Source: Asterionellopsis glacialis
Taxonomy: Eukaryota > Bacillariophyta > Plagiogrammaphyceae > Rhaphoneidales > Asterionellopsidaceae
Direction: 5' to 3'
Assembly (NCBI GenBank): GCA_014885115.2
Contig: WKLE02003192.1
Coordinates: 1 to 27,491 of the forward strand
Length of the DNA: 27,491 nt
Positions 14,264 to 14,890 of the stretch are shown piece after piece. Numbering within the stretch: position 1 is the stretch's first letter; each line of letters opens with the position of its first letter. A program made the translations under genes and the position numbers. The notes under the pieces are model-generated. The model had not been told where the DNA came from, made no database searches, and saw nothing but the letters and a program-made list of their open reading frames with translations.

Positions 14264-14764
14264 GGTAATTAATAAATCTAGTTAGGAAACTTTTGTAGTT
14301 TACAGATGGACGGTCTGAAGACAAACGAGAGTAATGTGACTGAACTTTCAATGACAGAGGATTCATACGTCGTACCTCCCTTCAAGAGAATCGATGTGTG
14401 TTTTTCATTTATTTATTTTATCACGATCAAGCGAGAGCCGAACACACGGCGAAAACAGAGAAAAGGGGCAACAGGCAGACTGTAGATGCTACGAGTACAG
14501 TCACTGTCGAAGTGACTCCAACTCCCACCAAACACACGAAAAGTCCCAGTCCTGGCCTGTTGTTATGTCCCCTGCCTTGTTTCCGTTTGATCTGGACTGT
14601 CTGTCTGTGACGCGACCCCCCGCCTATTTCAACCCAAAACCGTCGTAAAAGATGAGCTCATAACCTAGAAAGTTCCTAAAAAAGCAGTTACAGGGCAGGA
14701 ACTGCCGGGTGGTCAGGAACTGCCGGGTGGTCTGTGTCTATGATTAAATCTGCAAAAGAGAACT
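14264..14764. other. Region between the Msp1-like gene and the tRNA
   Basis: About 500 bases with no supported coding frame. It holds the Msp1-like promoter and, near the tRNA end, two tandem 18-base repeats at 14697-14732. Confidence 0.4.
14697..14732. repeat. Two tandem 18-bp direct repeats
   Basis: AGGAACTGCCGGGTGGTC occurs at 14697-14714 and again, identical, at 14715-14732. The pair lies about 30 bases beyond the trailer side of the permuted tRNA gene. No function is assigned. Confidence 0.85.
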
Positions 14765-14863
14765 CCGTAGTCAGGCGCCTTACCATTGGGCCAACAAGTC
14801 ATATTTGAAACCTGCCCGGGATTCGAACCCGGAATCTCCTGATTTCTGATGCTCTCGCTTGCA
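14752..14863 (-). promoter_or_regulatory. Leader-trailer stem of the permuted pre-tRNA
   Basis: Sequence before the 3' half (minus strand, 14863-14851, TGCAAGCGAGAGC) pairs with sequence after the 5' half (14763-14751, GTTCTCTTTTGCA). Of 13 positions, 12 pair (two G-U) and one is a C-U mismatch. Between this stem and the anticodon stem lies an 8 x 7 internal loop where the exon junction must be, a relaxed version of the bulge-helix-bulge cut by tRNA splicing endonuclease. The TTTT within the trailer could be the RNA polymerase III terminator; even then most of the stem would remain. Confidence 0.7.
14765..14843 (-). tRNA. Circularly permuted tRNA-Arg(ACG) gene
   Basis: Read on the minus strand, the 3' half comes first. 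14843-14808 holds A38, the anticodon-stem strand TCAGG, variable loop AGATT, T arm CCGGG-TTCGAAT-CCCGG, acceptor strand GCAGGTT and discriminator T. A 7-nt spacer (14807-14801, CAAATAT) follows. Then comes the 5' half, 14800-14765: acceptor strand GACTTGT, TG, D arm GCC-CAATGGTAA-GGC, G26, anticodon-stem strand CCTGA and loop CTACGG, with anticodon ACG at 14768-14766. Joined in normal order the halves give a 72-nt cloverleaf. The anticodon stem pairs 5/5, the T stem 5/5, the D stem 3/3 and the acceptor 7/7 (three G-U). Variable loop AGATT and D arm match the usual eukaryotic tRNA-Arg pattern. No T arm follows the 5' half and no D arm precedes the 3' half, so this is not a normal tRNA with an intron. 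A34 would become inosine and read CGU, CGC and CGA. The exact splice point in the loop is inferred. Confidence 0.85.
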
Positions 14864-14880
14864 TTGCCGGTGCTTATCAA

Positions 14881-14890
14881 AATATATAAT
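14881..14890 (-). promoter_or_regulatory. TATA-like element upstream of the permuted tRNA
   Basis: ATTATATATT on the minus strand lies about 20-25 bases before the leader stem, a spacing suitable for an upstream TATA element of an RNA polymerase III gene. The internal B box (GGTTCGAATCC) and A box (TGGCCCAATGG) are present but in inverted order because of the permutation. In AT-rich DNA such a motif can arise by chance. Confidence 0.35.

What the first reader, a model, noticed from the sequence alone, without database searches (positions are those of the whole stretch)
14765..14843. Circularly permuted tRNA-Arg(ACG) gene in a diatom
The 3' half of a tRNA (minus strand 14843-14808) lies upstream of its 5' half (14800-14765), separated by only 7 nt. 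Rejoined, the halves give complete acceptor, D, anticodon and T stems with a typical tRNA-Arg variable loop. Neither half has its normal partner on the expected side. Permuted tRNA genes are established in cyanidiophyte red algae (Cyanidioschyzon), prasinophyte green algae, a nucleomorph and an archaeon; I know of no diatom example. If real, the precursor must be spliced, circularised and opened at the spacer.
Basis: partly seen in the sequence, partly recalled or inferred. Interest (0 to 1): 0.95.

Follow-up and report, generated by a model that had tools for sequence, protein, structure and literature searches.

The report
Swapped-halves arginine tRNA genes in diatom
In a diatom genome the two halves of a predicted arginine tRNA gene lie in swapped order at three separate places with letter-for-letter identical halves, so the RNA is likely spliced into a circle and then reopened to give the working tRNA.

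Summary
On the minus strand, 14843-14808 is a tRNA 3' half, 14807-14801 a 7-nt spacer, 14800-14765 the 5' half; rejoined they are called tRNA-Arg(ACG). A covariance model made only from artificially rotated ordinary tRNAs of this genome finds the place at 61.3 bits, E 2.5e-15. The genome holds three such Arg loci on three diatom contigs: halves 72/72 identical, spacers different, flanks far less alike. The rejoined sequence hits only the six separate halves, no contiguous copy. A second permuted isoacceptor, tRNA-Ile(UAU), has three copies on contig C441, two in a 205-bp tandem. Leaders and trailers can pair around a 37/38 junction, and a T run starts 7-10 nt after each 5' half; a TATA-like element seen in 9 of 52 ordinary tRNA genes precedes two of the three Arg copies. 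tRNA-splicing endonuclease domains and RtcB are encoded. Likely type II permuted tRNA genes, matured through a circular RNA; every RNA step is untested. The kind is known in red and green algae, nucleomorphs and an archaeon; the held library listed no diatom or stramenopile report.

The parts
14874..14888 (-). TATA-like element TATATATTTTGATAA, predicted pol III promoter element 31-45 nt upstream of the 3' half
   Evidence: Position. TATTTTGAT occurs in -60..-20 of 9 of 52 ordinary tRNA genes here against a shuffled mean of 0.07 and 0 of 52 in -100..-61; it is also upstream of the L002 copy, not of the L003 copy.
14851..14856 (-). leader arm GAGAGC, can pair with trailer arm GTTCTC
   Evidence: Free minimum-energy fold shows the pairing; duplex -8.8 kcal/mol, 0 of 58 ordinary tRNA flank pairs and 43 of 2000 shuffles as stable.
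14844..14850 (-). end of the leader up to the predicted 3' splice site (ATCAGAA before A38); G(-3) could pair with C32
   Evidence: Sequence; GAA|A is kept in all three Arg copies.
14808..14843 (-). tRNA-Arg 3' half, positions 38-73 (anticodon stem 3' strand, T arm, acceptor 3' strand)
14819..14829 (-). B box region (T arm) GGTTCGAATCC, here upstream of the A box
   Evidence: Position; what the boxes are is from PMC3978253 section 5.
14801..14807 (-). 7-nt intervening sequence CAAATAT, predicted to be cut out by RNase P and tRNase Z
   Evidence: the other Arg copies have CACTAT and CGTCCT. No run of four T.
14765..14800 (-). tRNA-Arg 5' half, positions 1-37 (acceptor 5' strand, D arm, anticodon)
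14783..14794 (-). A box region (D arm) TTGGCCCAATGG, downstream of the B box
   Evidence: Position.
14766..14768 (-). anticodon ACG
14758..14763 (-). trailer arm GTTCTC, partner of the leader arm; the predicted 5' splice site lies just before A14764
14754..14757 (-). TTTT, predicted pol III terminator
   Evidence: 55 of 60 ordinary tRNA genes here have TTTT within 30 nt.

Best explanation
The window carries a circularly permuted tRNA-Arg(ACG) gene, one of three dispersed copies with identical halves, and its product likely matures through a circular RNA. Predicted steps: RNA polymerase III starts upstream of the 3' half near a TATA-like element and stops at TTTT after the 5' half. The leader and trailer pair next to the anticodon stem and present a relaxed bulge-helix-bulge substrate. 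The tRNA-splicing endonuclease would cut after G37 and before A38, and a ligase (an RtcB gene is present) would join G37 to A38 into a circle. RNase P and tRNase Z would remove the 6-7 nt spacer in the acceptor loop, CCA would be added, and A34 would become inosine (recalled as usual for this anticodon) so that the tRNA reads CGU, CGC and CGA. Shown: the gene order, the cloverleaf of the rejoined halves, three Arg loci, a second permuted isoacceptor (Ile-UAU), no contiguous gene found in the draft genome, and endonuclease and RtcB family matches. Inferred: every RNA step.
For: Rejoined halves are called tRNA-Arg(acg) by ARAGORN. Independent rotated-tRNA model: window 61.3, L061 57.9, L063 57.8, Ile copies 57.4, 54.2, 54.2 bits, the only six matches up to E 10 in 51,492 bases. 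Halves are 72/72 identical at three loci, while the best-conserved flank, 60 nt upstream of loci 1 and 2, aligns at 43 of 63 columns and the other flank pairs at 26-33 identical columns of 62-71; this points to selection on both halves. The rejoined query finds only six separate halves. The contiguous arm CTGACTACGGATCAG has no exact match and one place with 1 mismatch; at up to 3 mismatches 456 places against 432 for the reversed control. ARAGORN on the tRNA loci in hand shows Arg TCG and CCG but no ACG. CGT and CGC make up 95 of 223 Arg codons of ten window ORFs, ATA 33 of 202 Ile codons. Flank pairing: best duplexes -8.8, -4.9, -5.4 (Arg) and -7.3, -10.2, -10.6 (Ile) kcal/mol; 0, 6, 4, 2, 0, 0 of 58 ordinary flank pairs are as stable. 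PF01974 matches on two contigs over the cut-off; RtcB matches in three stretches on one contig. Tyr(GTA) has a canonical 37/38 intron here (my re-reading of ARAGORN's 'Ile gat').
Against: No RNA evidence was available. Against letter shuffles the leader-trailer pairings of Arg2 and Arg3 are unremarkable (333 and 517 of 2000 as stable; Arg1 43, Ile1 181, Ile2 58, Ile3 53). The free minimum-energy folds of Arg2 and Arg3 are not the permuted cloverleaf (0.9 and 1.6 kcal/mol better), nor those of Ile1 and Ile2 (3.6 and 3.4); Ile3 was not folded. Locus 3 lacks the TATTTTGAT element, which only 9 of 52 ordinary genes have. Position 73 is T in all three Arg copies, A in the other Arg tRNAs seen. Loci 1 and 2 are related 60 nt upstream too, so they are not independent events. 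The main RtcB stretch reads through one TAG. The assembly is a draft of 1503 contigs and RF00005 scored only 63 of 1479 candidates, so an ordinary gene may be missed.
Confidence: 0.87

Rival explanations
1. The locus is what is left of two tandem ordinary tRNA-Arg genes whose outer halves decayed, and it makes no tRNA.
For: Tandem duplication with loss of outer halves is a proposed origin of permuted genes (PMC3978253 section 10). Two ordinary tandem Arg(TCG) genes give a strong hit with the rotated model R1 (60.4 bits).
Against: Three loci keep both halves 72/72 identical while flanks have diverged; no outer halves within 600 nt beyond chance; spacers of 6-7 nt; no other gene for this tRNA found.
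Confidence: 0.06
2. The two halves are split genes whose separate transcripts are joined in trans.
For: Leader and trailer are complementary, as in split tRNA genes.
Against: Only 6-7 nt separate the Arg halves, with no run of four T and no room for a promoter; the order is the same in all six copies.
Confidence: 0.03
3. Assembly rearrangement or contamination made the swapped order.
For: Draft assembly of 1503 contigs of unnamed origin.
Against: Same order on three contigs with diverged flanks and in three Ile copies; the three Arg contigs carry genes whose visibly named relatives are diatoms.
Confidence: 0.02

Closest known systems
Type II (37/38) permuted tRNA genes of prasinophyte green algae (Ostreococcus, Micromonas)
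   Same: 3' half upstream, junction 37/38, AT-rich upstream region in some, spacers of 11-64 bp (Table 1 and sections 4, 5, 8 of PMC3978253)
   Different: Listed isotypes there are Ser, Leu, Cys, Arg(TCT), Asn, iMet; here Arg(ACG) and Ile(UAU), three copies each, in a diatom, Arg spacers 6-7 nt
Permuted tRNA genes of Cyanidioschyzon merolae
   Same: TATA-like element within 50 bp upstream of most, T stretch downstream, spacers 7-74 nt; circular intermediate shown there
   Different: C. merolae also uses D-loop and T-arm junctions; only 37/38 seen here. Its tRNA-Ile(UAU) has three introns (abstract of PMC9602550 in the listing)
Nucleomorph permuted tRNA-Ser genes of Bigelowiella natans and Amorphochlora amoebiformis
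   Same: 37/38 junction and 5-bp spacers in B. natans; both genes also in A. amoebiformis
   Different: Remnant genome of a green algal endosymbiont; here contigs that carry diatom nuclear-type genes
Permuted tRNAs of Thermofilum pendens
   Same: 3' half upstream of the 5' half, same strand, short spacer
   Different: Junction 59/60, CCA encoded, canonical introns in addition, archaeal
Permuted tRNA genes of Auxenochlorella
   Same: Permuted genes were found after an incomplete tRNAscan-SE set (passage)
   Different: Green alga; isotypes are in a supplementary figure that I did not see

Membership tests
Circularly permuted tRNA gene | 3' half upstream of 5' half on the same strand, separated by a short spacer (1-74 nt in the known cases of PMC3978253) | tested here: met
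   7 nt in the window; 6 and 6 at the other Arg loci
Circularly permuted tRNA gene | Rejoined halves form one full cloverleaf with conserved tRNA features | tested here: met
   ARAGORN Arg(acg); R2 61.3 bits. One D-stem pair (C13-A22) is not formed
Circularly permuted tRNA gene | Outer partner halves absent | tested here: met
   within 600 nt; the one weak match is treated as chance
Circularly permuted tRNA gene | Leader and trailer form a bulge-helix-bulge-like motif at the junction | tested here: inconclusive
   Pairing possible at all six copies; weak against shuffles at Arg2 and Arg3, and only Arg1 shows it in the free fold as a permuted cloverleaf
Circularly permuted tRNA gene | Upstream TATA-like or AT-rich element and downstream T stretch, no terminator in the spacer | tested here: met
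   the specific TATTTTGAT element is missing at locus 3, where I see only a TTTAAATA stretch
Circularly permuted tRNA gene | Linear precursor and circular RNA intermediate | not testable with these tools
   No RNA reads available
Circularly permuted tRNA gene | Mature, CCA-tailed, charged tRNA | not testable with these tools
   No RNA reads or assays
Type II (37/38) subclass | Junction between positions 37 and 38 | tested here: met
   5' half ends at G37, 3' half starts at A38; an A also follows G37 at all three Arg loci, so a 38/39 junction would give the same product
Ordinary intron-containing tRNA gene | 5' half upstream of the 3' half in one gene | tested here: not met
   no such arrangement found for Arg(ACG)
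Split (trans-spliced) tRNA gene | Halves in separate transcription units | tested here: not met
   6-7 nt apart, no run of four T between; no transcript was seen

The most novel reading that the evidence does not exclude
This diatom makes all of its tRNA-Arg(ICG) and tRNA-Ile(UAU), needed for CGU/CGC and AUA codons, only from permuted genes through circular RNAs; these genes multiply by dispersal (Arg) and in tandem (Ile), where two permuted copies side by side enclose an ordinary-looking intron-containing gene, a direct view of how permuted and ordinary forms interconvert. It would be the first case in stramenopiles.
Probability: 0.6. Interest if true: 0.82.

Novelty: new member of a known kind. 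Interest (0 to 1): 0.7.

Why it matters
Permuted tRNA genes have been described in a few red and green algae, nucleomorphs and one archaeon. Two permuted isoacceptors, three copies each, in a diatom add a distant lineage and suggest independent or repeated origins. Both would serve codons that no other tRNA seen here is expected to read well, so translation in this cell would depend on circular tRNA precursors. ARAGORN and Rfam missed the gene in the window, and ARAGORN read a tandem pair as one intron-bearing gene, so such genes may be overlooked in other diatoms.

Tried and rejected
Hunt for more permuted tRNAs: fixed 11-base T-arm patterns gave 50, 84 and 94 places (some occur in two lists, some on both strands). 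I read 66 short stretches around places not yet in hand (20, 6, 20 and 20). Left unread: three places on C348 and most of the other unseen places; those read from the latter two I chose by eye. The 66 gave three Pro(AGG) genes, two tRNA-like entries called His, and no new permuted gene by model R1, ARAGORN or eye (Rfam on 20 of them). The list of permuted isotypes may therefore be incomplete. Model R1 contains the three Arg copies, so its scores for them are not independent; on 64 sources it had 106 matches, mostly weak ones (30.4 bits or less) at ordinary tRNAs.

Contamination or assembly artefact: rejected. Remnant of a tandem duplication at locus 3: the weak match to the 5' half 496 nt upstream is inside an ORF and was judged chance. 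Relatives in other collections: exact 5'-half patterns had 0 matches in viral contigs (Arg, Ile) and 0 in genome contigs (Arg); these are viral and prokaryotic collections, so this says little. Family PF09511 gave nothing, but its controls gave nothing either. Two look-ups were not held: the 2010 prasinophyte report and PMC3728597; the 2007 report was not looked up. A first codon count had one ORF out of frame and the first flank comparison was without gaps; one search replaces both.

Full report
What is there. Neither ARAGORN nor Rfam reports a tRNA in the window. Rejoined, the 72 nt are called tRNA-Arg(acg) by ARAGORN: acceptor 7 of 7 pairs, T stem and anticodon stem 5 each, D stem 3 pairs with C13-A22 unpaired, a five-base variable loop.

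Is it chance? I rotated 14 ordinary tRNAs of this genome at 37/38, built a covariance model from them alone (R2), and searched the window, two 10-kb stretches with the other Arg loci and the Ile locus, 51,492 bases. The six matches up to E 10 were the six permuted copies, the window first at 61.3 bits, E 2.5e-15. An earlier model (R1) included the three Arg copies and is not independent for them; on 64 sources it had 106 matches up to E 10, among them 60.4 bits for a pair of ordinary tandem Arg(TCG) genes and 30.4 bits or less at ordinary tRNAs. So such a model alone cannot tell permuted from tandem genes; the 6-7 nt spacers and the missing outer halves do.

Three Arg loci. BLAST of the own genome finds the same arrangement on contigs C1021 (window), C835 and C211. 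The halves are identical in all 72 positions; spacers are CAAATAT, CACTAT, CGTCCT. With gaps allowed, the 60 nt upstream of loci 1 and 2 align at 43 of 63 columns (0 of 500 shuffles as good), so these two share an origin that includes the promoter region; the other eight flank comparisons have 26-33 identical columns of 62-71, with 22 to 480 of 500 shuffles as good. All three contigs carry genes whose visibly named relatives in the listings are diatoms: EF-P in the window, acireductone dioxygenase on C835, a prolyl-hydroxylase-like protein on C211 (many rows have no name and some names are cut off). The species is not known.

No ordinary gene found. The rejoined sequence matches only the six separate halves. 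The contiguous anticodon arm CTGACTACGGATCAG has no exact match and one place with 1 mismatch; with up to 3 mismatches there are 456 places against 432 for the reversed control. ARAGORN reported 72 tRNA entries in 64 sequences in hand (some loci overlap), with Arg TCG and CCG but not ACG. The limits: RF00005 scored 63 of 1479 candidates, and the assembly is a draft. In ten window ORFs CGT and CGC are 95 of 223 Arg codons and ATA 33 of 202 Ile codons.

A second permuted isoacceptor. ARAGORN read a tRNA-Ile(TAT) with a 109-nt intron on C441. The sequence shows three 3' half-spacer-5' half units: L086:1411-1497, 1806-1901 and 2011-2106. Copies 2 and 3 form a 205-bp tandem; copy 1 ends about 300 nt before copy 2, has a different spacer, and has C where copies 2 and 3 have T at acceptor position 5, both able to pair with G68. 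The 'intron' holds TTTTT shortly after the 5' half, so a pol III transcript would be expected to stop there. Only C441 matched the query. The middle of the tandem can still be read as an ordinary gene; copy 1 cannot.

Flanks. Leader and trailer can pair: GAGAGC/GTTCTC in the window, GAAAC/GTTTC and GAAGCG/CGCATC (5 of 6) at the other Arg loci, AAGC/GCTT and AACAC/GTGTT at Ile. Against 58 ordinary tRNA flank pairs, 0, 6, 4, 2, 0, 0 were as stable; against 2000 shuffles 43, 333, 517, 181, 58, 53 were, so Arg2 and Arg3 are weak alone. The window precursor's free fold is the permuted cloverleaf with that helix; for Arg2, Arg3, Ile1 and Ile2 the permuted fold lies 0.9, 1.6, 3.6 and 3.4 kcal/mol above the free minimum. 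In the three Arg copies C32 could pair with G(-3), leaving AA|A bulged, as it could in the Tyr intron here; in Ile the G is one base further (my reading). The junction fits 37/38, though an A on both sides makes 38/39 equally possible by sequence.

Promoter and terminator. TATTTTGAT occurs at -60..-20 in 9 of 52 ordinary tRNA genes, shuffled mean 0.07, and in 0 of 52 at -100..-61; it is at -41 and -39 of the window and L002 copies, absent at L003. TTTT follows within 30 nt in 55 of 60 ordinary genes; a run of at least four T starts 7-10 nt after G37 in all six permuted copies. The B box precedes the A box.

Machinery. PF01974 (tRNA-splicing endonuclease) matches on two contigs over the cut-off. 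RtcB matches in three stretches on one contig, the longest reading through one TAG; whether these are exons was not worked out. PF09511 is uninformative.

Comparison. The 2014 review PMC3978253 (outline with abstract, sections 5, 6, 8 and the first parts of 4 and 10 read) counts 34 permuted genes in six algae and one archaeon, most with junction 37/38 in green algae, with TATA-like and T-stretch flanks in C. merolae and a circular intermediate. Passages only were seen of PMC12636532 (Auxenochlorella), PMC4090602, PMC3218864, PMC13353863, PMC8007984, PMC4494063 and PMC8450103; none of these passages names a diatom with permuted tRNA genes. Searches for permuted tRNA with diatom, Phaeodactylum, stramenopile and alga from 2015, for circularly permuted with tRNA gene and Thalassiosira, and for the bare term list no such report by title or abstract; the library lacks most subscription papers, so priority is not settled.

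Verdict. A real, new occurrence of a known kind, in a lineage where I found no report, with two isoacceptors and six copies. The RNA steps are inferred from algae in which they were shown.

Noticed in passing
L086 (G000:C441:7500-11500), 1411-2106: Three permuted tRNA-Ile(UAU) copies, two in a 205-bp tandem that ARAGORN reads as one intron-bearing gene.
   Followed up: yes
L115 and L132: tRNA-like heads (called His GTG) followed by much the same tail sequence, perhaps a tRNA-derived SINE family; L144 has a similar head.
   Followed up: no
L054:101-189: ARAGORN's Ile(gat) is better read as Tyr(GTA) with a short canonical 37/38 intron.
   Followed up: partly
L035 (G000:C120:5280-5290): Extra 3'-end fragment of tRNA-Ser about 80 nt downstream of a full tRNA-Ser(AGA).
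   Followed up: no
upstream of ordinary tRNA genes, G000: A recurrent TATTTTGAT element around -29 to -41 (9 of 52 genes), a candidate pol III promoter element of this diatom.
   Followed up: partly
L005, L020, window Arg copies: The Arg tRNAs seen (TCG twice, CCG, ACG) have a G1-U72 pair; the permuted ones have T73, the others A73.
   Followed up: no
L015:2816-2887 / L058: Asn-like tRNA with one base missing in the anticodon loop, probably a pseudogene.
   Followed up: no
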